DNA of 64,000 nt from a virus: the IMG/VR virus record IMGVR_UViG_3300032294_002710, positions 1-64,000 of that record; one strand, 5' to 3'. Under the pieces are notes generated by a model. That model saw nothing but the letters and a program-made list of their open reading frames with translations. It ran no database searches and was not told where the DNA came from. The position numbers and the translations under genes were made by a program. Below, piece by piece: positions 44,027-59,841 of this stretch. The first letter of the stretch is position 1; every line of letters starts with the position of its first letter.

Positions 44027-44374
44027 ATGAGACATTTAAAAAAGTTTGAAGATCTTGACTATAAAGATATACTAGCTCAACAGGCTAAATTTAGAGAAGA
44101 GATTGAAAAATCTCGACTTGAAGAAATAGAAAGAAGAAGACAGGAATTATCTGGAAAGCATTTGTCAAAGCTATCATCAGAGTCTGAGAGAAAGAGTAAG
44201 ATGGAAACAATGATACAAGAACGACAAGAACTTACCCATTTAGTCATTCAAGCTTTAATTTATTCAGAACAGAATAAAGATGGATTTGATAATTTTAAAA
44301 ATGATTTAAAAGAACTATTGGATAAATATCCATTAGATAAGCTTCCTAGAAGTGGGTCATCAATTTATAGATAA
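44027..44374 (+). CDS. Small charged helical protein with capsid-targeting-like N-terminus
   Basis: 115 residues starting MRHLKKFEDLDYKD, which shares its first eight residues with the gene at 54211 but uses different codons for them. The rest is a charged helix (KFREEIEKSRLEEIERRRQEL) and a short helical domain. It sits directly upstream of the portal gene, among head genes, as expected for an internal head or core protein. Function unproven. Confidence 0.6.
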   Translation: MRHLKKFEDLDYKDILAQQAKFREEIEKSRLEEIERRRQELSGKHLSKLSSESERKSKMETMIQERQELTHLVIQALIYSEQNKDGFDNFKNDLKELLDKYPLDKLPRSGSSIYR

Positions 44375-44427: not shown

Positions 44428-46137
44428 ATGGCATCAACTTATAATCCTCTTGGGCAAAATACAACTCAGTTTAACAGCGCTATTGAAAATCGAGGACTTT
44501 TTAGTAGAATTTTAAGAAACTTATCATCATGGGGTATGAACTATGATGATATGATTATGAGAAACCAAGTCGGTGTTGGTATAAACGAAGATCCTTATAC
44601 TATACAAGGTAACTCAATGTATGACTTCTTTAGTAGAAGAGCTGTTGCCTCTGTTTTAAATAGAAAGTCAATTCCTTATTTAGATAGATCTTATGCTGAT
44701 AAAAGAAGAATTTTAAGAGAATATTCTATAAAGGATGAAATAAGAGATTTCGTATCAACAGTTTGTGATGAATGTGTTATTTACTCTGATAAAGATTTTT
44801 GCAGACCTAAAAACTTATCTAATGACTATACACAAGATGTTACGGATAAATATCAGGAATTCTTTGAGAAAATTTATAATAGATACGGTTTTTCAGATTC
44901 TGTTACCGCTTGGAACTTCATGAAAGATTTCTTGATTGATGGATATTTGGCAATGGAGATAGTTTGGGATGATAAAAAAAAGAATATTATACACTTTAAT
45001 AGATTAAGACCTGAGACTTTGGTTCCAGCTTTTGAACCATCTATAGGTAATATTTGGATTCAGTACCCGGAAGATCCACAATTAAGAAGAATATTTCTTG
45101 ATTCACAAATTATTTTTATTTCTTACTCTACTCAAAATGACTATTCTGAAACTTCATATGTGGAGGGCTTGATAAAACCATATAATCAGTTGAAGATAAT
45201 TGAGCAGACTAAAATTATGTTTAACATAATAAATGCCACTGTTTATCAAAAATTTACTATACCTGTTAAAGGTTTATCTAGACAAAAGGCTGAGGAGCAA
45301 ATAGGTCAATTAATAAATGATTACTCAGAGGAAGTTGAGTGGGATGACTCGTTAGGTACACTTCAAATAAATGGTACTAAACACCTACCATATAATAAAC
45401 AAATTTGGTTTCCAGAGGGTGATGCGGGTACTCCAAATATGGAGTTAGTCTCACCACAAGGACATAACCTAAATGAAGACGATATATTAAAGTGGTTTTA
45501 TAATATTTTAAAAAGAGCTTCAAAAATTCCAGTTCAAAGATTTGAAGGTGATAATGGTGGTGGTAATGTATTTACCGATGCTGCTGAGATGACAAGAGAT
45601 GAGGCTAAGTTTAGTAATTTTATTGGTAGATTAAGAGCGAATTTCAAAGAATTACTTGTTAAACCATTGAAATTGCAAATGTTGGTGGAATTTCCAGAAT
45701 TTAAAGATGATGAGGTTATTTTAAATCAAATTGATGTTGATTTTATTTCAAATCAATTGTTTGAGGAGTGGAAAAAATTAGGAAATATGTCTAAGAAAAT
45801 TGAAATACTTGGTAGTTATACTGGAATTCAGAAGGCTGATGGTACACCTTATTTCCACATAGAATATTTAATAGATCACGTGTTGAAATTATCATCTGAA
45901 GAAAAAGAGGAAAATAAAAGATACTGGGTTAAAGATGCTGCAGGAGCTGGATCTTCAGAGGCAACTCCTGGTGAGGCTGGTGCTGGTGAGGCTGGTGCTG
46001 AATTCGGTGGAGAAGAGGCCGGTGGCGCTCAAGCTACTCCTGAGACCCCTGAAGCTCCCGCTCCTGAGACAGGTGGTGGAGAAGCTGGTGGTGAGGCAGG
46101 TGGTGGAGAAGCTGGTGGTGGAGAATTTGAATTCTAA
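44428..46137 (+). CDS. gp20: Portal protein (T4 gp20-like)
   Basis: 569 residues. The N-terminal part (SMYDFFSRRAVASVLNRKSIPYLDRSY...KRRILREYSIKDEI) and the body (DGYLAMEIVWDDKKKNII, NRLRPETLVPAFEP, VEGLIKPYNQLKIIEQT, WFYNILKRASKIPVQRFEGD) follow the gp20-type portal. The last 75 residues are a low-complexity Gly/Ala/Glu/Pro tail, unusual for a portal. The dodecameric portal is the packaging vertex and head-assembly initiator. The gene order portal, protease-scaffold, capsid matches T4 (20-21-22-23). Confidence 0.93.
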   Translation: MASTYNPLGQNTTQFNSAIENRGLFSRILRNLSSWGMNYDDMIMRNQVGVGINEDPYTIQGNSMYDFFSRRAVASVLNRKSIPYLDRSYADKRRILREYSIKDEIRDFVSTVCDECVIYSDKDFCRPKNLSNDYTQDVTDKYQEFFEKIYNRYGFSDSVTAWNFMKDFLIDGYLAMEIVWDDKKKNIIHFNRLRPETLVPAFEPSIGNIWIQYPEDPQLRRIFLDSQIIFISYSTQNDYSETSYVEGLIKPYNQLKIIEQTKIMFNIINATVYQKFTIPVKGLSRQKAEEQIGQLINDYSEEVEWDDSLGTLQINGTKHLPYNKQIWFPEGDAGTPNMELVSPQGHNLNEDDILKWFYNILKRASKIPVQRFEGDNGGGNVFTDAAEMTRDEAKFSNFIGRLRANFKELLVKPLKLQMLVEFPEFKDDEVILNQIDVDFISNQLFEEWKKLGNMSKKIEILGSYTGIQKADGTPYFHIEYLIDHVLKLSSEEKEENKRYWVKDAAGAGSSEATPGEAGAGEAGAEFGGEEAGGAQATPETPEAPAPETGGGEAGGEAGGGEAGGGEFEF

Positions 46138-47088: not shown

Positions 47089-49275
47089 ATGAAATCTATT
47101 CTTATTGTTGAAAATTCAACAAACTCTCTCTCAAAGATTAACGAGAGCAATAATAAGTCCCAAAATATTTTAGGTGGTATTTTCACAGAATTCGATATTA
47201 AAAATCGTAATGAGAGAATTTATACTGCTGATAAATTTCTTCCTTGTTTAGAGGAAATGAATGAAAGGATTACAAACATGGGTTCTGTTTATGGTGAGTT
47301 TGATCATCCAGATGTATTTGATACATCTTTGGCTAGAGCATCACACTTAGTTACAAAAGCGGAATTCGTTAAAGAAAATAATAGAGTCGAAGGTGAAATT
47401 AGATTACTCAACACTCATTGGGGTAAAGAAGCTCAAGCATTGGTTAACGATGGTTGTCCAGTTTTTGTTTCTTCACGCGCTGCTGGTATTACAGAGTCAG
47501 ACGGTACTGTTACATTGAAAAAGTTATTTACTTATGATATTGTGGCTGACCCTGGTTTTGCATCAGCAAAAATGAATGTTAAGACACTTAATGAATCGTT
47601 CGGCTTCTCTAATAAAGCTAACTTTAGGATATATGAAATGTCCGATGAGTCAAAAATAAATGATTTATTTAATATGAACACTAATGATTTAGTTACTAAA
47701 GAACAGTTAACTGATTATTCTAAATATCTTATTAATGAGTTGGCTTCTACTAAGAAAGAAGTTCGTGACGCAATTAAGAAAGGTAATCTTAACCCAAAGA
47801 AATTAGAACAGTTACTTGAGTACTATGAAAACTTAAACGAGACAAATTCTCAAATTGTTAAGTACTTAGACTATTTGGCTGAAAAAGTTCAAGTTGTTGT
47901 TAATGAGAACACAAGTCTTAAAACAACTGCTGAAAAACTTATCAAGCACAATGATTATTTGGCAGAAAACCTTGAAAAGGCAATAAATTACACTGAGTAT
48001 GTTGCTGAAAATCTTGATAAGAATATTGAGTATTCAGAATACTTAGCAGAAAATCTTGACAAGAACATCTCTTACTCAGAATACATCGCTGAAAATCTTG
48101 ATAAGAACATTTCTTATTCTGAATATTTGGCTGAAAATCTTGATAAGAATATAGCTTATTCTGAATATTTGGCTGAAAATCTTGATAAGAACATTGCATA
48201 CGCAGAATACATCGCTGAAAATCTTGATAAGAACATTTCTTATTCAGAATATTTAGCAGAACATCTTGATAATTCTATCGCTTACTCAGAATATTTGGCT
48301 GAGCATGTTGAGGGAAATATCGCATACTCAGAGTACATCGCAGAAAATCTTGATGATAACATTGCATACTCTGAATATATTGCAGAAAACCTTGATAAGT
48401 CAATCTCTTATCAAAGTTTGATTGTTGAAAAATTAAATGGTGGTAAGTTATTTGAAAGTAACGAAGAAGAAGATAGATTACCATCTTTAAATGTCGTTGG
48501 TATTGATTCATACGAAGAAGAGGCCGATGATAAATATGAAGAGGAAGAAGAAAATGCATGGAATGATAACTCAGAAGCTCCTTCTGCTGAAGAAACTCCA
48601 GGCGTATCTGAATCTAATGAGGCTGAAGAAACATCTTCTGAAGCTGATGAGGCTGAAGAAACATCTTCTGAAGCTGATGAAATGTCATCTGAATCTGAGG
48701 AAACACCTTCTGAATCTGATGAATATAATGAGTCACCTGCTTATGAAGGTAACTCTGATACTGAATTATCTAAATCTATTGATAAATTGATCGAAGAAGC
48801 TAAAAAACGTAAAGCTATTGAAACATCCGATCTACACTTTTTAAAATTCTTAAACAAATCTCAGGTTGATAGTTACTACTCTTTAACTAATGAAGAGCAG
48901 GAAGCTGTTACACTTTACATAAGCGAAAAAAGTTTCTTTACACAACAAGATGTGTTGAGATTAATCTCTGAGGCTTTGACATCTAAGAATGAAACTCTTG
49001 AAGAAAGAGTAATCAGATTGATGCCTGAAAACATCAAGCCAATCTGGAATCAATTAAATGAGAGTGCTAGAAAATCCATTTTATCTCAAGCTAGATTATA
49101 TCCAGCTGAGGTTATGTCAACTGATTCACAAGTTGAACATTTCTGGATGACTAGAAATCTCAAGAAAAATGAATCTGTTACTAAGAAATTAGTTTCACAT
49201 GAGAGTATGATTCAAGAAGATAAAATATCTGAAAAGGAATTGAATGCAATCATGGAAAGATTTAAAAACCTTTAA
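47089..49275 (+). CDS. gp21: Prohead protease fused to a scaffold-like repeat and helical domain
   Basis: 728 residues against about 212 for T4 gp21. Residues 1-190 are the S80-type prohead protease: GSVYGEFDHPD gives the catalytic His, VFVSSRAAG the Ser, and LFTYDIVADPGF follows. Residues about 288-440 hold ten 14-residue repeats of the type Y-x-E-Y-[LIV]-A-E-N-L-D-K-N-I-x. An acidic Ser/Glu linker (about 460-560) and a helical C-terminal domain follow. T4 has a separate protease (gp21) and scaffold (gp22), and here both functions seem joined (inference). The repeats contain [LIV]-A-E, matching the T4 protease preference for L/I-x-E, so the core may be digested by its own head. Confidence 0.85.
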   Translation: MKSILIVENSTNSLSKINESNNKSQNILGGIFTEFDIKNRNERIYTADKFLPCLEEMNERITNMGSVYGEFDHPDVFDTSLARASHLVTKAEFVKENNRVEGEIRLLNTHWGKEAQALVNDGCPVFVSSRAAGITESDGTVTLKKLFTYDIVADPGFASAKMNVKTLNESFGFSNKANFRIYEMSDESKINDLFNMNTNDLVTKEQLTDYSKYLINELASTKKEVRDAIKKGNLNPKKLEQLLEYYENLNETNSQIVKYLDYLAEKVQVVVNENTSLKTTAEKLIKHNDYLAENLEKAINYTEYVAENLDKNIEYSEYLAENLDKNISYSEYIAENLDKNISYSEYLAENLDKNIAYSEYLAENLDKNIAYAEYIAENLDKNISYSEYLAEHLDNSIAYSEYLAEHVEGNIAYSEYIAENLDDNIAYSEYIAENLDKSISYQSLIVEKLNGGKLFESNEEEDRLPSLNVVGIDSYEEEADDKYEEEEENAWNDNSEAPSAEETPGVSESNEAEETSSEADEAEETSSEADEMSSESEETPSESDEYNESPAYEGNSDTELSKSIDKLIEEAKKRKAIETSDLHFLKFLNKSQVDSYYSLTNEEQEAVTLYISEKSFFTQQDVLRLISEALTSKNETLEERVIRLMPENIKPIWNQLNESARKSILSQARLYPAEVMSTDSQVEHFWMTRNLKKNESVTKKLVSHESMIQEDKISEKELNAIMERFKNL
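47950..48420 (+). repeat. Tandem 42-base repeat encoding 14-residue scaffold units
   Basis: About eleven head-to-tail 42-base units in frame, encoding YSEYLAENLDKNI and variants. Several neighbouring units are nearly identical in DNA (CTTGATAAGAACATT), others have synonymous changes. Antisense frames over this block are repeat artefacts. Confidence 0.9.
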
Positions 49276-49314: not shown

Positions 49315-51045
49315 ATGTCACACATTAGAATAGACAAACAAAAAGCAGTCAAGAAGTGGTCTCCAGTTCTTGAAAACATGGGTGTTACTGGTGATAGAGT
49401 AGAATGGATGTCAGAATATGCTGAGTTCCACTCAATTAACGAGAACGCTTATGCTAACACAGCTATCGCTGGTATGGGAGCTGTTTTAAATCCAGTTATT
49501 GGTGCTAACACACCAGCTGGTGCTTTGACTACAGGTCAAGGTTTCGCTGGAGTTGCTGGTTCTGGAGATTTAGGTCAAAACCTTCTTCCAGTAGCTATGA
49601 AAATTGCAGCTCAAACAATAGGTCTTGACCTTGTTGCTGTTAAACCTTCTCCAGGTCCAAAAATCGATTTACTTTATATTGACTTTCAGTACGATGATAC
49701 TGATTTGACTTTTAACGGTAGACCACAAGTTTTCAAAGTTACTGCACTTAACGGTACTGCATGGTCAGCAGCTAACACTGCAACTGTAACAGCAGCTTTA
49801 TCAGCAGCTACTACATTGACTTCAGGTGGTCTTAGAGGTGGTAGATTATTCTGTACTGGCTCAACAACTGCTGGTGCTACTGGTGCTTTCACTACAACTG
49901 TACCAAGTGATAACGCTTCTAAAGCAGGTGTTCTTGAATTCTTAGGTTTCTCTCGTGTAGATGGTTACCCAATGTTCAGAGCATGGAGACAATCAAACTC
50001 TCAATCAACAGGTGGTGTTTTCAACTCATTACATGCTGGTTACCCATACACTTTTGACCAAACTCAAAACACATTTGGACCAACTGGTTCAATCGTTTCT
50101 CAATTGAACTTCATTGGTACAATCGTTGCATCAGCTTCTTCAGTTGATTTAGTATCAGCTCTTGAAGATCACCTTCCAGGTTTCTCAACTAACTGGACTT
50201 CTTCATCTGCTTCAGGTGATTATCCAATGAGTCGTCAAACTGATGATAATACTTATGCTGGTATTATCGGACCAAAAGTTTCTTCTAAAACTGTAGCTGT
50301 AGGTACTATTGAAGTATCAACTGCTCTTAGAAGAACAGAAATTGAAGATATCAAGGCTAACACAGGTATGGATATCGTTCAAAAGATGGAATCTATCCTT
50401 GTTAACGAATTGTCTCAGACAATCTCTAGACAAATTGTTGATAGAATCTTCTCATTAGGTACTGCTAACAGAAACACTTCTCCATTATCTTATGGTTGTG
50501 CTACTATCCAAGCTACTGCTTCTACAATCTTCGACCTTAACACAGTTTACGCTGGTTCAAGTATCGTTGGTGGTGAAACTACTCACGCTGTTCAACGTAA
50601 GTTGATCACTAAGATGGTTCACGCTTCTAACTACATTGCAACTGAAGGTCGTGTTGGTCCAGCTCAATTCGCTGTAACTAACGGAGGTCTTGCAGCAGCT
50701 CTTATGGATATCGCTGGTTATACAATTAACCCAGTTAAATCTAAGATTACTGGTCAAGGTCAATTATACCCAGTTGGTCAAATCGGTGATATTTCTATCT
50801 ATGTTGATCCTTATATGAAGTATAACGACAACAGAATCGTTCTTGGTAGAAAGAATAACCCAGATCAACCAGGTCTTATCTTCATTCCTTACTTGATGGC
50901 TCAGTCTATCAGTGTAATTTCTGAAGCGACTTTCGCACCAAGAATGTTGTTACGTTCAAGATACGCAATTGCAGATGTTGGATTCTTCCCAGAAAAACAA
51001 TATATGACAATTGTTGTTACAGACATTAACCAATTATTGAACTAA
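49315..51045 (+). CDS. gp23: Major capsid protein (T4 gp23-like)
   Basis: 576 residues. The helical N-terminus (KKWSPVLENMGVTGDRVEWMSEYAEFHSINE) is like the gp23 pro-region. NTAIAGMGAVLNPVIGANTPAGAL, KIAAQTIGLDLVAVKPSPGPKIDLLYIDFQY, RTEIEDIKANTGMDIVQKMESILVNELSQTISRQIVDRIF and GFFPEKQYMTIVVTDINQLL follow T4 gp23 closely. The pro-region would be cut by the protease encoded upstream. Codon use is richer in GCT, AAC and CTT than in its neighbours, as expected for the most highly expressed gene. Confidence 0.96.
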   Translation: MSHIRIDKQKAVKKWSPVLENMGVTGDRVEWMSEYAEFHSINENAYANTAIAGMGAVLNPVIGANTPAGALTTGQGFAGVAGSGDLGQNLLPVAMKIAAQTIGLDLVAVKPSPGPKIDLLYIDFQYDDTDLTFNGRPQVFKVTALNGTAWSAANTATVTAALSAATTLTSGGLRGGRLFCTGSTTAGATGAFTTTVPSDNASKAGVLEFLGFSRVDGYPMFRAWRQSNSQSTGGVFNSLHAGYPYTFDQTQNTFGPTGSIVSQLNFIGTIVASASSVDLVSALEDHLPGFSTNWTSSSASGDYPMSRQTDDNTYAGIIGPKVSSKTVAVGTIEVSTALRRTEIEDIKANTGMDIVQKMESILVNELSQTISRQIVDRIFSLGTANRNTSPLSYGCATIQATASTIFDLNTVYAGSSIVGGETTHAVQRKLITKMVHASNYIATEGRVGPAQFAVTNGGLAAALMDIAGYTINPVKSKITGQGQLYPVGQIGDISIYVDPYMKYNDNRIVLGRKNNPDQPGLIFIPYLMAQSISVISEATFAPRMLLRSRYAIADVGFFPEKQYMTIVVTDINQLLN

Positions 51046-51064: not shown

Positions 51065-51092
51065 AAAAACCCTCCAATTGGAGGGTTTTTTG
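51065..51092 (+). terminator. Intrinsic terminator of the capsid gene
   Basis: AACCCTCC (51068-51075) pairs with GGAGGGTT (51080-51087) around AATT, followed by a T run. Confidence 0.88.
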
Positions 51093-51102
51093 TTTTATAT
51101 AA

Positions 51103-51113
51103 GTAATATATAA
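51103..51113 (+). promoter_or_regulatory. GTAATATATAA promoter-like element, short spacing
   Basis: Directly behind the capsid terminator and ending 3 bases before the ATG at 51117. Confidence 0.5.
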
Positions 51114-51116
51114 CAT

Positions 51117-51512
51117 ATGATAAATAAATACGAGAAGTTTTTAGAATCTAAAAAAGATAAATTTCCTAATATCCAGACAAAAAAATTAGATGATTTTAGT
51201 ATTTTAATAGGTAAAGATGCTGTATCAAATGATTTTTTGACAACTAATATGGCGAATGATGATGACTTGTGGTTTCATGCAGCTGGTGTTCCGGGAAGTC
51301 ATATTGTTATAAAGGTAAGTGATAAGTTACCTATGGAAAAACATATTGAAGAAGTCGCAAAGTTGGCGGCTAAAAACTCGAAAGCACCAAAAGGTGTTAA
51401 AGTTAAGGTAGTCTATTGTAAAGCTAAGTTTGTTAAGAAAAATTCAGATATGAAACCTGGTCAAGTTAGTGTAGATTATAAAAACGCTCAAGAAATAGTT
51501 GTAGAAAATTAA
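51117..51512 (+). CDS. Stand-alone NFACT-R (RqcH/NEMF-type) domain protein with targeting-like N-terminus
   Basis: 131 residues. After MINKYEKFLESKKDKF comes a complete NFACT-R domain: SILIGKDAVSNDFLTTNMANDDDLWFHAAGVPGSHIVIKV, with the hallmark D-x-W-F-H and GSH motifs, then a helix EVAKLAAKNSKAPKGVKV and a final strand. In RqcH/NEMF proteins this domain sits beside NFACT-N and the coiled coil that bind stalled 60S/50S-tRNA complexes and promote alanine tailing. Here it is alone, as in some small bacterial proteins. The function is presumably in ribosome or RNA quality control, and the N-terminal FLE signature suggests it could be packaged (inference). Confidence 0.8.
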   Translation: MINKYEKFLESKKDKFPNIQTKKLDDFSILIGKDAVSNDFLTTNMANDDDLWFHAAGVPGSHIVIKVSDKLPMEKHIEEVAKLAAKNSKAPKGVKVKVVYCKAKFVKKNSDMKPGQVSVDYKNAQEIVVEN

Positions 51513-51537: not shown

Positions 51538-52896
51538 ATGGCAGATCCAATTATCTGGTTTAGTGATAAATTACATGATATAATAGATGATATAAATGGT
51601 CCAGTTGCTGAAGCAATGCTTAAGATGTTAGATGGAAACTATTTAACAAAAAATGAATTAAAAATTAAAAAAGTAGATGTTTCTGTTACCGATTGGAATT
51701 TTGATGTTACTGTTGGTAGTGATGGCCAAGTTCCTGTAAAGCAGCGAATGAAAGTTGGTAAGTTTATAAGACATTTCTTTGGTAGTACATTTACCGATAA
51801 ACAGATTTATGACTTTACAATGGCTTATAATAATTTGAAGAAGGGAATTCCTGCTTCTACTCAAACGGCTAAAGTTAGCTATAAAAAGGTAGAAGTTCCA
51901 GAATTTTCATATAATCCAAAAGATGTTAGATCTACATTTTTATCTCTAACAACTAAGACATATCCACACGGACATGAAGAAGAAGTTTTAAAGTTCTTAC
52001 CAAGCCTTGAAAAGGATCAGTTTGGAAATTATTATAAAATAATTGGCAAATCAGAAACAATGTTTACATCACACTTAGATACAGCTGATAGACAACAAAA
52101 AAATGTTAATGTCTATAGTACAATATTAGCAGATGGTGATGAAATGTTCGTTACTGATAATAAATCTATATTGGGTGCAGATGATAAATCAGGTGTATCT
52201 GTTATGTTGTATATGATGGCTCATAATATTCCAGGTGTTTACTACTTCTTTATTGGAGAAGAGAGAGGAGGAATAGGTTCGCATCAGGTTGCTGGTGTTT
52301 TTGAAACAGTTGAACATTTAAAAGGCATGAAGAGATGTGTATCTTTTGATAGAAGAAATTATTTTTCAATAATAACACATCAATTAGGTAGACAATGTTG
52401 TTCAGATCAGTTTGCTCAAGCTTTAGCAAACGAATTGAATAAAGGTGGATTATCCATCGCTTTAGATCCAACAGGTGTTTATACTGACTCCGCTTCTTTT
52501 ATAGATGAGATACCAGAGTGTACGAATATCTCAGTTGGATATTTTTCAGAACATACTGATAGAGAAAGTCAAAACATTTCATATTTAGAAAGATTAGCAA
52601 AATCTTGTCTAAATGTTAAATGGGAAGAACTTCCAACTGTTAAAAAAGTTGGATTTGATGAGGAAATAATGAGAAAGTATAAGCCATTTATTTCAGATTT
52701 TAAATCAACTATATTTAATCTTGAAACAAAGATGGTTAGTGAGTATGGAAGAGCATTTATTAAAATTGATGTTGATGATCCAGATCCTGCTATTGTTTTT
52801 CAAGATTTAAAATCAGTAGAATCATTATTATCTAAGCATAAAATGGATCCAGATATTCAATTTGATGATAATTATATAAAAATAGAACTAAAATAA
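51538..52896 (+). CDS. Zinc metallopeptidase of the M20/M28/M42 type
   Basis: 452 residues: an unrelated N-terminal domain of about 130 residues, then a peptidase domain. Metal-site motifs occur in order: TSHLDTA (His, Asp), ILGADDKSG (bridging Asp), GEERGGIGSHQ (catalytic Glu and metal Glu), SFDRRNYF (Asp) and a late His in SEHTDRE. This is the co-catalytic zinc aminopeptidase arrangement. It directly follows the NFACT-R gene, and its stop overlaps the next ATG. Possible roles are trimming tagged or released peptides or digesting host proteins. The target is unknown. Confidence 0.8.
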   Translation: MADPIIWFSDKLHDIIDDINGPVAEAMLKMLDGNYLTKNELKIKKVDVSVTDWNFDVTVGSDGQVPVKQRMKVGKFIRHFFGSTFTDKQIYDFTMAYNNLKKGIPASTQTAKVSYKKVEVPEFSYNPKDVRSTFLSLTTKTYPHGHEEEVLKFLPSLEKDQFGNYYKIIGKSETMFTSHLDTADRQQKNVNVYSTILADGDEMFVTDNKSILGADDKSGVSVMLYMMAHNIPGVYYFFIGEERGGIGSHQVAGVFETVEHLKGMKRCVSFDRRNYFSIITHQLGRQCCSDQFAQALANELNKGGLSIALDPTGVYTDSASFIDEIPECTNISVGYFSEHTDRESQNISYLERLAKSCLNVKWEELPTVKKVGFDEEIMRKYKPFISDFKSTIFNLETKMVSEYGRAFIKIDVDDPDPAIVFQDLKSVESLLSKHKMDPDIQFDDNYIKIELK

Positions 52897-53363
52897 TGAT
52901 AAAGAATGTTAAATTACAAAATATAATTCTTGAAACAAACAGAACTTTTCAAGACGGATATGAAGACGACTATGAGGATGACTATTTTGATCAGTATGGT
53001 AAAGAAGACTTTATTGATGATGATGAGATATCTGAAGAGGAAGAAGAGGATAATCTTGGTTATCTTATAAGAACATTTTTAAGTGCTAGAGGAATTCGTT
53101 CCTATGTTGAAACTGATGGTAAGGATGTTATTATATATGTTTATTTAAATAAAAAAGAGAAAATAAAAAATCTAACTAAAATTTTTGACGTTGTAGTTAA
53201 TAATATGAAGGTACAAATGTTTGAAGATTATGATTTAGAAACTGAGTTGTATGAAACAAAAGAAGGTGAGCATATATTCTCTTTTACTTTCTATGCTGAT
53301 GGAAGTATAGATAAAGATGATTATTCGGATCAAGAAGATTTTACTTCAAGGATACCTTTTTAA
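52896..53363 (+). CDS. Small very acidic protein, 155 aa
   Basis: MIKNVKLQNIILETNRTF is followed by a dense acidic stretch (YEDDYEDDYFDQYGKEDFIDDDEISEEEEED) and a small alpha/beta domain with a KKEKIKNL basic helix. The start overlaps the peptidase stop, so the two are coupled. The IILE segment near the N-terminus is a weak version of the shared signature. Function unknown; the acidic part suggests a nucleic-acid mimic or scaffold-like role (inference). Confidence 0.55.
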   Translation: MIKNVKLQNIILETNRTFQDGYEDDYEDDYFDQYGKEDFIDDDEISEEEEEDNLGYLIRTFLSARGIRSYVETDGKDVIIYVYLNKKEKIKNLTKIFDVVVNNMKVQMFEDYDLETELYETKEGEHIFSFTFYADGSIDKDDYSDQEDFTSRIPF

Positions 53364-53380
53364 AAATAGAAAATAAACTA

Positions 53381-53412
53381 TTTGGTGGTTTAATATATAA
53401 TGTGTATATTTG
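53381..53412 (+). promoter_or_regulatory. Bacteroidota-type promoter of the tmRNA gene
   Basis: TTTG at 53381-53384, a 20-base spacer, and TATATTTG at 53405-53412 match the Bacteroidota -33/-7 consensus. The RNA 5' end (GGGGATG at 53426) is 14 bases downstream. The same arrangement with the same spacing precedes the release-factor gene. Confidence 0.75.
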
Positions 53413-53425
53413 TTAAATCTTATTC

Positions 53426-53799
53426 GGGGATGATATGAATTGATTCGCAGAGTAGAGATGATTAAGCAGGCATCGGTTTGGTAAAGTCCGATTAAAATAA
53501 ATTATCAAAATCGTAAACGGAAACGTTACAAATGAAGTAGGAACCAGTGAAGATTTAGTAGCTGCTCTACAAAACAACTTGCTCACTGTGAATGAGCTTG
53601 AAGTAGCCTAATCTTAGGATACATTCTAAAAATTCACACTGAATCACAACAGTATAAATAGTGATAGTTTTTTGTTAGAGTGTTTTTGAGTCGAAACAAC
53701 TATCTATTTTGTAAGTTACAGAAAAACTTTCTAAGCTTGTGAACGATTAACCGTTTTTAACTGAGGAAGACTCCGGTTCGTTACCGGACATCTCCACTA
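53426..53799 (+). ncRNA. ssrA: Transfer-messenger RNA (tmRNA) with an unusually long tag frame
   Basis: About 370 bases, the usual tmRNA length. The ends pair as a 7-bp acceptor stem, GGGGATG (53426-53432) with CATCTCC (53789-53795), including the third-position G-U that marks alanine charging. The 3' end is A-CTA, so CCA is not encoded. A T-arm (TCCGG, loop TTCGTTA, CCGGA at 53772-53788) precedes it; the loop lacks the usual A58. The 5' part (GATTAAGCAGGCATCGG...CCGATTAA) resembles bacterial tmRNA. After an upstream TAA at 53498, an open frame runs to TAA at 53609-53611. If resumption is at GTA 53513, the tag has 32 residues, beginning VNGNV, containing LVAA, and ending NELEVA. It frees stalled ribosomes and marks the product for proteolysis. 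Confidence 0.85.
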
Positions 53800-53828
53800 A
53801 CCACTCCAAAGATAGTATTTTTGGACTG

Positions 53829-53860
53829 ACACCAACTCAAAAGGTTGGTGTTTCTTTTTA
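53829..53860. terminator. Terminator after the tmRNA gene
   Basis: ACACCAAC (53829-53836) pairs with GTTGGTGT (53844-53851), followed by TTCTTTTT. It is also close to the stop of the convergent gene at 53858. Confidence 0.8.
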
Positions 53861-54211
53861 TACAATATTGATTTGAATTTTATTTTCTTGGCCACAATCC
53901 CAAATGTTTATAACTTTACATTTTTTATTTAGAGCCTTTTCTATTCTTTCTAAGACTTCTAAAATAGATTTTATTAATTCTAATTTTAGCTTTGAGTATT
54001 CAATTGAATATATGTCTCCCGATATTAATTTGTAGGTATTTATCATTAATGATATCCCTTTTACACTCTTATCAAGAGAGTTGAATGGATATAATTCACC
54101 AGTAATTTCGGGGTAATCATCTTTTAGTTCTTTTAAAATATCTTTAATTTCTGAAATGTCATTTTGATAATCCTCATATTCTGAGTTTTCAAATTTTTTA
54201 AGGTGTCTCAT
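53858..54211 (-). CDS. Small protein with capsid-targeting-like N-terminus, 117 aa
   Basis: Begins MRHLKKFENSEYEDYQ, identical in its first eight residues to the protein at 44027 but with other codons (CAC CTT against CAT TTA). The rest is an acidic helical domain and a C-terminal strand with CKVINIWDCGQEN. A single gene with its own short-spaced TTAATATATAA. Function unknown. Confidence 0.6.
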   Translation of the reverse strand: MRHLKKFENSEYEDYQNDISEIKDILKELKDDYPEITGELYPFNSLDKSVKGISLMINTYKLISGDIYSIEYSKLKLELIKSILEVLERIEKALNKKCKVINIWDCGQENKIQINIV

Positions 54212-54242: not shown

Positions 54243-54743
54243 ATGATAAACTCTTTTACAGGAAGATATAGATTTCTTTCAAATTTCTATCCAGTTGAAA
54301 TAGAACACCAAGGTATTAAATACCCATCAGTTGAACATTATTATGTTGCTATGAAGATTAAAAATGATCAACAAATTGATGGTAAATTTATAACCATGAT
54401 AGATTGTAGAGAAATGATTGCTAAAATACCCGATGCTGGTAAAGCGAAACAATTTGGTAAATTTCTTAAATTGAGAAAAGATTGGGAAGATGTCAAATTA
54501 GATGTTATGCTTTGGGGAATTAGAGAAAAGTTTAAAAATGAAGAACTTAAACAATTGTTAAATGAAACAGGAGATGAGGAATTAGTTGAAGGTAATTTTT
54601 GGGGTGATAAATTTTGGGGCGTTAGTTCTGGTGAAGGTGAGAATCATCTTGGTAAAATTTTAATGAGAGTTAGAGAAGAGGTTAGACAAGTAAATAAGAA
54701 GCCCTCACTTGAAGAGTTTCTAAAAAATAGAAATAAAGAATGA
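54243..54743 (+). CDS. NADAR (YbiA-like) ADP-ribose glycosidase-family protein
   Basis: 166 residues. FLSNFYPVEIEHQGIKYPSVEHYYVAMK, IPDAGKAKQFGKFLKLRKDW, VMLWGIREKF and NFWGDKFWGVSSGEGENHLGKILMRVR are all hallmarks of the NADAR fold, including the conserved Glu in SVEH and the WGD...WG motif. Family members cleave N-glycosidic bonds of riboflavin intermediates or of ADP-ribosylated guanine in DNA, and some counter DarT-type toxins. In a phage it may undo anti-phage ADP-ribosylation of its DNA. Its TGA overlaps the next ATG, so it is coupled to the DNA methylase. Confidence 0.88.
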   Translation: MINSFTGRYRFLSNFYPVEIEHQGIKYPSVEHYYVAMKIKNDQQIDGKFITMIDCREMIAKIPDAGKAKQFGKFLKLRKDWEDVKLDVMLWGIREKFKNEELKQLLNETGDEELVEGNFWGDKFWGVSSGEGENHLGKILMRVREEVRQVNKKPSLEEFLKNRNKE

Positions 54744-58588: not shown

Positions 58589-59047
58589 ATGAACGCTCAT
58601 AAAAAATTACGAGAACTTGGTTTTAAAAAGACCAATTTTTATAAGCCAGGTTATGACCCTGAGACTTATGAATCTTGTATGCTTTTAGATGAGTATGATA
58701 CTAAATGGGAAACAGTTAATGGTAAAAGAGTTTCAGTAAAAGTTAATAAGATACATCCTAAATCAGATTCATTTTGGGTTTTAAAGTATAATGAAAATTA
58801 TATACTTTGGTGTTATGTGAAGTCACATCAAATAGACAAAATATGGGTAGAGAATAAATTAGGAAAGAGTCGAAGTAAAAGTAGGTTGTTATATTATGGT
58901 GTTGGTTCGGGTGATGATAGGTTAAAAATGGTTTTTGATTATAATAACAGGGAATCAAATCCATTACAAGGTAAAAATCAAATTATGAATTTACTACCTA
59001 AAGAAGTAAAAAGAGATTTCTTACTTGAACAACTTTTTGGATTTTAA
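58589..59047 (+). CDS. Hypothetical protein, 152 aa
   Basis: A soluble protein starting MNAHKKLRELGFKKTNFYKPG, with a basic end. TATATTTG at 58576-58583 lies just before the ATG, but without a TTTG 20 bases upstream. It is divergent from the gene at 58557. The stop is 116 bases before the release-factor gene, whose promoter overlaps the end of this gene. No family recognised. Confidence 0.55.
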   Translation: MNAHKKLRELGFKKTNFYKPGYDPETYESCMLLDEYDTKWETVNGKRVSVKVNKIHPKSDSFWVLKYNENYILWCYVKSHQIDKIWVENKLGKSRSKSRLLYYGVGSGDDRLKMVFDYNNRESNPLQGKNQIMNLLPKEVKRDFLLEQLFGF

Positions 59048-59067
59048 TATATAATATTGTATATTTG
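59036..59067 (+). promoter_or_regulatory. Bacteroidota-type promoter of the release-factor gene
   Basis: TTTG at 59036-59039, 20 bases, TATATTTG at 59060-59067: the same boxes and the same spacing as for the tmRNA gene. A phage-type AATATATAA (59046-59054) overlaps it, as it does upstream of the tmRNA. The leader to the ATG is about 90 bases. Confidence 0.7.
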
Positions 59068-59163: not shown

Positions 59164-59841
59164 ATGGAACAAATCATTATAGAAATAAGAGCCGCTGAAG
59201 GTGGACAAGATTCAAAACTACTTGTTGAAGATTTAAGAGATATCTATCTCAAAACTGCTAGAGTTAATAACTTTGATTATAAAGTTACTAATCGTGATGG
59301 ATTTACATCAATTTGACTGACTGGTCAGGGAGTTAAATCACTTTTTAAAAACGAAAGTGGTCCTCATCGTTGGTTAAGAATTCCACCAACTGAGAAGAGA
59401 GGTCGAACACAAACTTCAATTATCACTGTTGCACTAACCGATCCTAATGATAAATTAGATTTCAGGTTTAATCGAAATGAGGTTATAAAACAATATACTC
59501 GTAGTAGCGGAAAAGGTGGACAGAATGTTAATCGTAGATCTACCTGTGTTCAATTAACCCATGTACCAACTGGTATTCAAGTTAAATGTCAGGATCAAAG
59601 AGATCAAAGTAAAAATGAGGAATTAGCTTGGATTCGTATTGAAGAGAAACTTAGAATAATACATGATGATTCTCAAAGTAAGACTATTTATCAAAATCGT
59701 TTTGATCAAGTTGGTACTGGTTCAAGATCGGATAAAAAAAGATCATATAGGATCAAAGAGAATTTGGTAGTTGATCATGAGACTGGTAAAACCTGCACAT
59801 TTACTGACTTCTTAAAGGGAAGAATTGATTTATTGTCCTAA
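59164..59841 (+). CDS. Peptide chain release factor lacking domain 1, interrupted by an in-frame UGA
   Basis: From ATG 59164 one frame gives MEQIIIEIRAAEGGQDSKLLVEDL..., the start of release-factor domain 2. TGA occurs at codon 51 (59314-59316). The same frame then continues LTGQGVKSLFKNESGPHRW, RIPPTEKRGRTQTS, SSGKGGQNVNRRST and so on to TAA. GGQ is residues 118-120 and the P-x-T tripeptide (RF1-type, UAA/UAG reading) is 74-76. Total 225 residues including the UGA position, with no room for N-terminal domain 1. Against RF1/RF2 the UGA replaces one strand residue (Lys of IAKISG), so nothing else is missing. Neither a +1 nor a -1 shift bypasses it. Readthrough, editing or a pseudogene are the options. 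Sequence conservation on both sides favours function. Confidence 0.85.
59311..59338 (+). other. Hairpin containing the in-frame UGA
   Basis: AUUUGACU (59311-59318) can pair with AGUUAAAU (59331-59338) in eight pairs (one G-U), placing the UGA codon inside the 5' arm. GA-UC adds two inner pairs around CUGG. Alternatively CUGA (59317-59320) pairs with UCAG (59325-59328) right behind the UGA. The UGA is followed by C, the leakiest context. Confidence 0.45.

What the first reader, a model, noticed from the sequence alone, without database searches (positions are those of the whole stretch)
51117..51512. Stand-alone NFACT-R protein with a targeting-like N-terminus behind the capsid gene
The domain is complete (DLWFHAAGVPGSH) but has none of the other RqcH parts. 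It is placed just after the capsid terminator with its own element and starts MINKYEKFLES. A ribosome-quality-control domain delivered with the virion would be a new kind of injected effector.
Basis: partly seen in the sequence, partly recalled or inferred. Interest (0 to 1): 0.7.

Follow-up and report, generated by a model that had tools for sequence, protein, structure and literature searches.

The report
Giant-phage ribosome-rescue protein beside hidden tmRNA
A giant bacterial virus carries, right behind its main shell gene, a small RNA-binding protein otherwise known from ribosome quality control, with a front-end signal that may load it into the virus head, and next to it an overlooked ribosome-rescue RNA with an unusual tag, suggesting that these viruses bring their own ribosome-rescue kit.

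Summary
ORF 51117-51512 is a complete stand-alone NFACT-R (PF05670, 62.9 bits; AlphaFold model matches RqcH on the 50S), directly behind gp23, after a terminator, with its own TAATATATA element. It is conserved: one phage clade keeps it behind gp23 in 57 IMG/VR loci and two complete 634/642-kb Mahaphages. The larger find lies 1.9 kb downstream (53426-53799): a one-piece tmRNA that ARAGORN misses and Rfam scores below cut-off. Its Ala-type G3-U70 acceptor stem pairs in 37/37 distinct copies, and its conserved 27-30 aa tag never ends in LAA. NFACT-R and this tmRNA occur together in 33 of 42 distinct capsid loci; the others are truncated, diverged or lack both nearby. SmpB is elsewhere in 5 of 5 cassette records of 385 kb or more. 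The N-terminus does resemble a T4-type capsid-targeting leader: 28 of 148 ORFs of this phage share the pattern, against 3 of 504 bacterial ones, and they favour the late-promoter-like element. Packaging and injection are plausible but unproven. Best reading: a late-made, probably head-packaged RNA-binding accessory of a phage ribosome-rescue cassette. New variant of known kinds; function untested.

The parts
44428..46137 (+). portal protein gp20, T4 type
   Evidence: PF07230 192 bits
47089..49275 (+). prohead protease fused to long scaffold-like repeats
   Evidence: phrog_207 head maturation protease 100 bits; PF03420 22.9 bits, below its cut-off of 27
49315..51045 (+). major capsid protein gp23
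   Evidence: PF07068 98.6 bits
51065..51090 (+). terminator-like hairpin between gp23 and NFACT-R
   Evidence: 11 pairs then T run
51104..51112 (+). TAATATATA element, 4 nt before the NFACT-R start; proposed late-promoter core
   Evidence: 21 in window vs 5.05 expected, 0 of 100 shuffles as many; 31 ORFs of the record have one within 60 nt upstream; same or similar stretch before NFACT-R in most loci
51117..51146 (+). residues 1-10 (MINKYEKFLE), capsid-targeting-like leader
   Evidence: pattern statistics; disordered in the model; conserved pattern in A4
51117..51512 (+). stand-alone NFACT-R protein, 131 aa
51510..51518 (+). TAATATATA element before the peptidase gene
51538..52896 (+). peptidase, PepT-like, conserved neighbour
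   Evidence: phrog_4191 230.8 bits; TIGR01883 29.5 bits, below its cut-off
52896..53363 (+). acidic ORF, conserved neighbour, function unknown
53381..53412 (+). promoter-like TTTG-N20-TATATTTG (Bacteroidetes sigma type, consensus recalled) before the tmRNA
   Evidence: similar stretch in most loci
53426..53799 (+). one-piece tmRNA (ssrA)
   Evidence: RF00023 38.2 bits, E 1e-13, gathering score 47; acceptor stem and tag conserved; fold z -3.7; ARAGORN calls the homolog in L059
53519..53611 (+). tag reading frame GNVTNEVGTSEDLVAALQNNLLTVNELEVA plus stop
   Evidence: frame start by analogy with the ARAGORN call in L059
53828..53852 (+). terminator-like hairpin after the tmRNA

Best explanation
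The gene is a phage-lineage NFACT-R protein, made late with the virion parts and probably loaded into the prohead by its N-terminal leader, which the phage's own gp21-type protease would cut. It belongs to a conserved ribosome-rescue cassette behind gp23 together with a phage tmRNA, which would work with SmpB. Delivered at the next infection and made again late, it most likely binds large-subunit or tRNA-like RNA at stalled ribosomes. There it would assist phage trans-translation and/or keep host RQC (RqcH) off the complexes. Shown: identity, fold, cassette conservation, tmRNA anatomy, SmpB in long records, leader statistics. Inferred: late timing, packaging, injection, RNA or ribosome binding, link to trans-translation.
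For: NFACT-R identity and fold. tmRNA in 50 of 57 NFACT-R loci; the other 7 contigs end before its place. 33 of 42 distinct gp23 loci with at least 5 kb downstream have both; the 3 with tmRNA only hold a diverged NFACT-R in the slot. Acceptor stem paired in 37 of 37. SmpB in 5 of 5 cassette records of 385 kb or more. Leader pattern 28 of 148 vs 3 of 504. Element-leader association, Fisher p 6e-4. The leader also starts two N-terminally extended forms, L084 and L055.
Against: No direct evidence of virion presence, cleavage or RNA binding. Linkage to tmRNA may be clade synteny. NFACT-R and tmRNA have different upstream elements, so need not be co-expressed. SmpB is also in relatives where no cassette was found near gp23: LR756504, LR756501, Lak-B5, so it is not specific to the pair. 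The leader regular expressions were written after seeing the list of N-termini. L006 and L021 have N-terminal extensions without the leader at the start. L091, L094 and L096 have lost the DWH and PGSH motifs.
Confidence: 0.4

Rival explanations
1. Decoy of host RQC: NFACT-R without NFACT-N occupies the RqcH site near the A-site finger, blocks poly-alanine tailing and leaves stalled ribosomes to the phage tmRNA.
For: Fold match to RqcH on the 50S; no catalytic parts; 187 of 247 sampled Bacteroidota genomes have an NFACT-R match, mostly in frames of RqcH length.
Against: A published HMM survey finds rqcH in only 404 of 1,956 FCB genomes (PMC11633108, section 5), so many hosts may lack the target. 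No binding data.
Confidence: 0.2
2. Internal head protein that binds the packaged DNA or scaffold; the translation link is incidental.
For: Fold match to CCDC25 bound to DNA; place in the head cluster; leader-like N-terminus.
Against: The gene keeps a tmRNA close by across divergent loci, also where the tmRNA is inverted.
Confidence: 0.17
3. Not packaged: a late cytoplasmic translation factor; the shared N-terminus is a translation-start or other sorting signal, not a capsid leader.
For: The element sits 4-5 nt before many starts, so the first codons may serve initiation on near-leaderless mRNAs.
Against: The pattern is seen at amino-acid level, ends in an acidic residue as a prohead-protease site would, and is kept in divergent orthologs.
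Confidence: 0.18
4. Chance neighbours kept by synteny: NFACT-R, peptidase and tmRNA have unrelated roles.
For: All loci belong to one capsid clade; one block; separate upstream elements.
Against: Linkage survives an inversion and distances from 1.9 to over 4 kb, and both parts are missing together near gp23 in three outgroup phages.
Confidence: 0.25

Closest known systems
RqcH / Rqc2 / NEMF (FbpA), C-terminal NFACT-R domain
   Same: Domain fold and motif (91 bits to B. subtilis RqcH; rmsd 1.3 over 104 columns with 8s1u).
   Different: No NFACT-N, HhH or coiled-coil/M parts; separate clade on a long branch.
Stand-alone cellular NFACT-R: CCDC25 and bacterial ~130-aa proteins (L163, L213, L190, L210, L176, L182)
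   Same: Single-domain architecture; the bacterial ones include the best-scoring cellular sequence; L213 lies beside an ORF that looks like YhbY (by eye).
   Different: Phage clade is separate (100/100); cellular stand-alone forms group elsewhere; no leader seen.
Mahaphages LR745206 (634 kb) and LR756502 (642 kb)
   Same: NFACT-R 59 and 55% identical, nearly the same gene order, and the tmRNA, SmpB.
   Different: Published account (PMC7162821, passages) reports tmRNA and SmpB in huge phages in general, with tmRNA found by ARAGORN, which misses this one; the word NFACT does not occur in its main text.
T4 internal proteins IPI-III with capsid targeting sequences
   Same: Short N-terminal leader with aromatic residues and a terminal Glu (T4 letters recalled), in a phage with gp20, gp21-type protease and gp23.
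   Different: T4 leaders are tested; here none is. Cargo domain differs.
Phage-encoded tmRNAs (mycobacteriophages, Bacillus phage G, Melnitz)
   Same: Phage carries its own ssrA (PMC4131195, PMC9004378, passages).
   Different: Here a tag family of 27-30 aa ending in A or V, linked to NFACT-R; eight sampled Bacteroidota tmRNAs have 9-10 aa tags ending in AA.

Membership tests
NFACT-R domain (PF05670) | profile score above curated cut-off over the whole domain | tested here: met
   62.9 bits, 7-110 of 112
NFACT-R domain (PF05670) | fold | tested here: met
   pLDDT 91; 15 PDB matches at E <= 0.001, all RqcH, FbpS, CCDC25 or NEMF/yeast RQC complexes
RqcH / NEMF | NFACT-N, HhH and coiled-coil/M parts in the same protein | tested here: not met
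   131 aa, only NFACT-R matched
RqcH / NEMF | tRNA-Ala recognition and alanine tailing | not testable with these tools
   needs biochemistry
Stand-alone cellular NFACT-R | common clade with cellular stand-alone proteins | tested here: inconclusive
   phage clade 100/100 but its neighbour fork is weak, 62/81
T4-type capsid-targeted internal protein | N-terminal leader with targeting and cleavage residues | tested here: inconclusive
   pattern enriched in this phage; post hoc regular expression; spacing to Glu is one residue shorter in the window protein than in the T4 leader as recalled, equal in L041, L101, L111
T4-type capsid-targeted internal protein | gp21-type prohead protease in the genome | tested here: met
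   phrog_207 100 bits
T4-type capsid-targeted internal protein | presence in virion, leader removed | not testable with these tools
   needs proteomics
tmRNA (RF00023) | covariance-model score | tested here: inconclusive
   window 38.2 bits vs gathering 47; relative in G011 58 bits
tmRNA (RF00023) | 7-bp acceptor stem with G3-U70 | tested here: met
   37 of 37 with intact 3' end; pairs 5-68 and 6-67 covary
tmRNA (RF00023) | tag reading frame with stop | tested here: met
   37 tags of 27-30 aa; the two other frames are closed in 37 and 36 of 37; ARAGORN tag in L059
tmRNA (RF00023) | LAA-type C-terminal degron, common but not universal | tested here: not met
   0 of 37 end in LAA; all end in A or V
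tmRNA (RF00023) | SmpB partner | tested here: met
   5 of 5 cassette records of 385 kb or more; not in the 134.9-kb window record, a likely fragment

The most novel reading that the evidence does not exclude
Mahaphages inject an NFACT-R protein from the head and run a private ribosome-rescue system (NFACT-R + phage tmRNA + SmpB). Its long tag is not the host LAA degron, so rescued phage polypeptides are spared or routed to a phage-chosen fate, while NFACT-R keeps host RQC away.
Probability: 0.13. Interest if true: 0.9.

Novelty: new variant of a known kind. Interest (0 to 1): 0.62.

Why it matters
It would show that some of the largest phages carry ribosome rescue as a linked, partly virion-borne module, and that a tmRNA tag can be long, conserved and non-LAA. 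It gives a test case for what an NFACT-R domain does without the rest of RqcH, and a tmRNA family that ARAGORN overlooks in 27 of 28 stretches scanned here.

Tried and rejected
Tag homology: the tag was aligned to all own ORFs; the best score (40, the neighbouring peptidase) lies within shuffled tags (mean 37, max 50), so it was rejected. Origin from host RqcH: not supported, the phage family is one clade on a long branch. SmpB as a specific partner of the cassette: weakened, since SmpB also occurs in LR756504, LR756501, Lak-B5 and G019, in whose loci no cassette was found near gp23. The L091/L094/L096 slot gene as an unrelated replacement: rejected, it is a diverged NFACT-R by profile chain A4-A7-A6 (99.8 and 99.6% probability). 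First reading of the tag start as GTA was replaced by GGN after the ARAGORN call in L059. In one search the L054 tag was misparsed; corrected. Listeria, Enterococcus and Helicobacter 'phage' hits were not followed; they look like host RqcH. A covariance model of the phage tmRNA was not built (length); nhmmer was used instead.

Full report
The observation. ORF 51117-51512 is a 131-aa protein with a complete NFACT-R domain (PF05670 62.9 bits, positions 7-110 of 112) and nothing else of RqcH. It is the only PF05670 match in the 134,852-base record. The predicted fold is confident from residue ~18 on (mean pLDDT 91, pTM 0.82). Foldseek puts RqcH on the 50S first (8s1u, rmsd 1.3 over 104 columns, 41% identity), then FbpS and, further down, DNA-bound CCDC25. 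The gene follows gp23 (ends 51045) after a terminator-like hairpin at 51065-51090.

A conserved phage family. IMG/VR gives 57 loci, and the phage collection gives two genomes of 634,780 and 642,428 bases, LR745206 and LR756502, at 59 and 55% identity. The Nature 2020 huge-phage paper (PMC7162821, passages) describes circular genomes of 634 and 642 kb, places its largest genomes in the Mahaphage clade and predicts Bacteroidetes hosts for those over 634 kb; I match the records to it by length. The order protease/scaffold, gp23, NFACT-R, peptidase, acidic ORF, gap, NADAR, Dam methylase is shared by the window, L003 and L004 and nearly so by L005 and L006; L002 ends before NADAR. In a few loci (L097, L105, L134, L147, L090, L084, L111) NFACT-R lies 2-4 kb behind gp23. 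PF05670 occurs once in each of 14 records searched. In a tree of 114 rows the 31 phage proteins form one clade (100/100) on a long branch; its nearest cellular neighbour is unresolved. PHROGs has no family for it.

A hidden tmRNA. The gap at 53364-53857 holds an RNA that ARAGORN does not call in the window and Rfam scores at 38.2 bits, E 1e-13, under the gathering score of 47. All six first loci keep it. A nucleotide profile finds it in 50 of the 57 IMG/VR loci; the seven others (L021, L025, L027, L029, L039, L044, L051) end before its place. ARAGORN was run on 28 stretches and calls one, L059, with the tag GNTNEVASKEELVFALRNNQLKVNEVASVA; L002 and L011 are the same stretch. One relative, G011, passes the Rfam cut-off at 58 bits; L005 and L006 give no Rfam match. 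Of 39 distinct tmRNAs, 37 have an intact 3' end: all seven acceptor pairs form in 37 of 37, G3-U70 is invariant, and pairs 5-68 (AT 25, GT 6, GC 6) and 6-67 (TA 33, CG 3, AT 1) vary together. The window copy folds with z -3.7 and shows the acceptor stem and T arm. The CCA end is encoded in only 2 of 37.

The tag. The window tag reads GNVTNEVGTSEDLVAALQNNLLTVNELEVA. 37 tags were parsed (L019 missed by the pattern but read; L063 cut). They are 27-30 aa, end in A (19) or V (18), and none ends in LAA. Synonymous codon differences make up 25% of differences in this frame against 15 and 7% in the two others, which are closed by stops in 37 and 36 of 37. Eight Bacteroidota tmRNAs have tags such as GENNYALAA, all ending in AA. 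The recent tmRNA database paper gives 10 aa as the commonest length (PMC11915505, passages).

Linkage. To avoid selecting on NFACT-R, I took gp23 relatives (best 80 of 227). 30 had under 5 kb downstream and 8 were duplicates. Of the 42 left, 33 have NFACT-R and tmRNA, 1 has NFACT-R only (L090, whose contig ends there), 3 have tmRNA only, 5 have neither. The three tmRNA-only loci hold in the NFACT-R slot an ORF with a leader-like start, linked to NFACT-R by two profile comparisons; it has lost the DWH and PGSH motifs. One of the five with neither (L109) has NFACT-R elsewhere in its record. In LR756504 (636 kb), LR756501 (735 kb) and Lak-B5, neither NFACT-R nor tmRNA is found within 10 kb of gp23. 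All of this is one capsid clade, so shared descent may explain part of the linkage.

SmpB. Present in 5 of 5 cassette records of 385 kb or more and in 0 of 9 shorter ones, absent from the window record, which is probably a fragment. It is also in LR756504, LR756501, Lak-B5 and G019, and not in G013, so it is not specific to the cassette.

The N-terminus. A leader pattern ([KR].?[YFLIVW]..[FY].{0,2}E within residues 2-15) is on 28 of 148 ORFs of this record, against 5, 2 and 2 in three internal windows, a shuffle mean of 4.6 (max 11 of 500), and 3 of 504 ORFs of bacterial loci. The pattern was written after seeing the N-termini, so the internal and bacterial controls matter more than the number itself. 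Of 51 NFACT-R orthologs, 34 match it and 46 match a looser form with E[SGA]; 16 divergent rows were dropped before that count because the script could not place their start. Two forms with N-terminal extensions, L084 and L055, again begin with a leader, while L006 and L021 do not. In T4, ten N-terminal residues suffice for capsid targeting, residues 4 and 7 matter for targeting and 8 and 10 for cleavage (PMC9026906, passages).

The element. TAATATATA occurs 21 times in the window against 5.05 expected. In the record there are 38 sites on both strands, and 31 ORFs have one within 60 nt upstream, mostly at 4-5 or 18-22 nt, including a tail sheath and a baseplate wedge subunit. Leader-bearing ORFs have it more often (13 of 28 vs 18 of 120, Fisher p 6e-4; two other pattern choices gave 0.02 and 0.003). 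I read it as a late-promoter core. The tmRNA instead has TTTG-N20-TATATTTG, although a TAATATATA lies inside that stretch at 53391-53399.

Mechanism. In RqcH-50S structures the NFACT-R domain lies near the A-site finger and is poorly resolved, while NFACT-N and HhH hold the tRNA (PMC8012679, passages). A lone NFACT-R cannot be an alanine-tailing enzyme by that scheme, but could bind the same RNA site. Together with the tmRNA this favours a rescue accessory or an RQC decoy. Whether hosts have RqcH is unclear: 187 of 247 sampled Bacteroidota genomes match PF05670, but a published survey finds rqcH in 404 of 1,956 FCB genomes (PMC11633108, section 5).

Print. NFACT-R plus phage returned one review; NFACT/DUF814 returned a prasinovirus paper that reports NFACT domains in algal viruses; huge phage, Lak, tmRNA and rescue searches gave nothing on this pair in their listings. 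The library holds open-licence PMC papers only, so absence is weak evidence.

Noticed in passing
window 59164-59841 (+); L247, L248: Release factor of RF1 type (PCRF 62.7 and RF-1 90 bits; motif PPT where RF1 has PxT, recalled) with an in-frame TGA at 59314-59316. Both 634/642-kb Mahaphage homologs keep a TGA at the same place in the same context (TGA CTR), and one has a second: likely programmed UGA readthrough or a code-linked switch. TGA is an ordinary stop elsewhere in the record (17 of 148 ORFs). Not found in the 14 other records searched.
   Followed up: partly
window 59036-59067 and 53381-53412: The release-factor gene and the tmRNA are preceded by near-identical promoter-like stretches (TTTG..TAATATATAA..TATATTTG).
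   Followed up: partly
38 sites in the 134.9-kb record, e.g. 51104-51112: TAATATATA stands 4-5 or 18-22 nt before many starts; if it is a promoter core, many late mRNAs may be leaderless.
   Followed up: partly
whole record, e.g. 44027-44374, 53858-54211, and record positions 105921, 126079-128725: At least 28 of 148 ORFs carry the capsid-targeting-like N-terminus: a possible list of head-packaged proteins of this phage.
   Followed up: partly
L006:14668-15381, L021:5674-6384, L084:10837-12135, L055:5530-6363: NFACT-R with N-terminal extensions in frame; in two of them a leader-like start is at the new N-terminus.
   Followed up: no
window 54243-54743: NADAR domain protein (PF08719, 93.8 bits) near the cassette in many loci; possibly linked to ADP-ribose based defence.
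   Followed up: no
L213:3944-4336: Bacterial stand-alone NFACT-R lies directly before an ORF that looks like YhbY, a ribosome-associated protein (by eye).
   Followed up: no
window 47089-49275: Prohead protease continues into many near-identical repeats of the type SEYLAENLDKNIAY, perhaps a fused scaffold.
   Followed up: no
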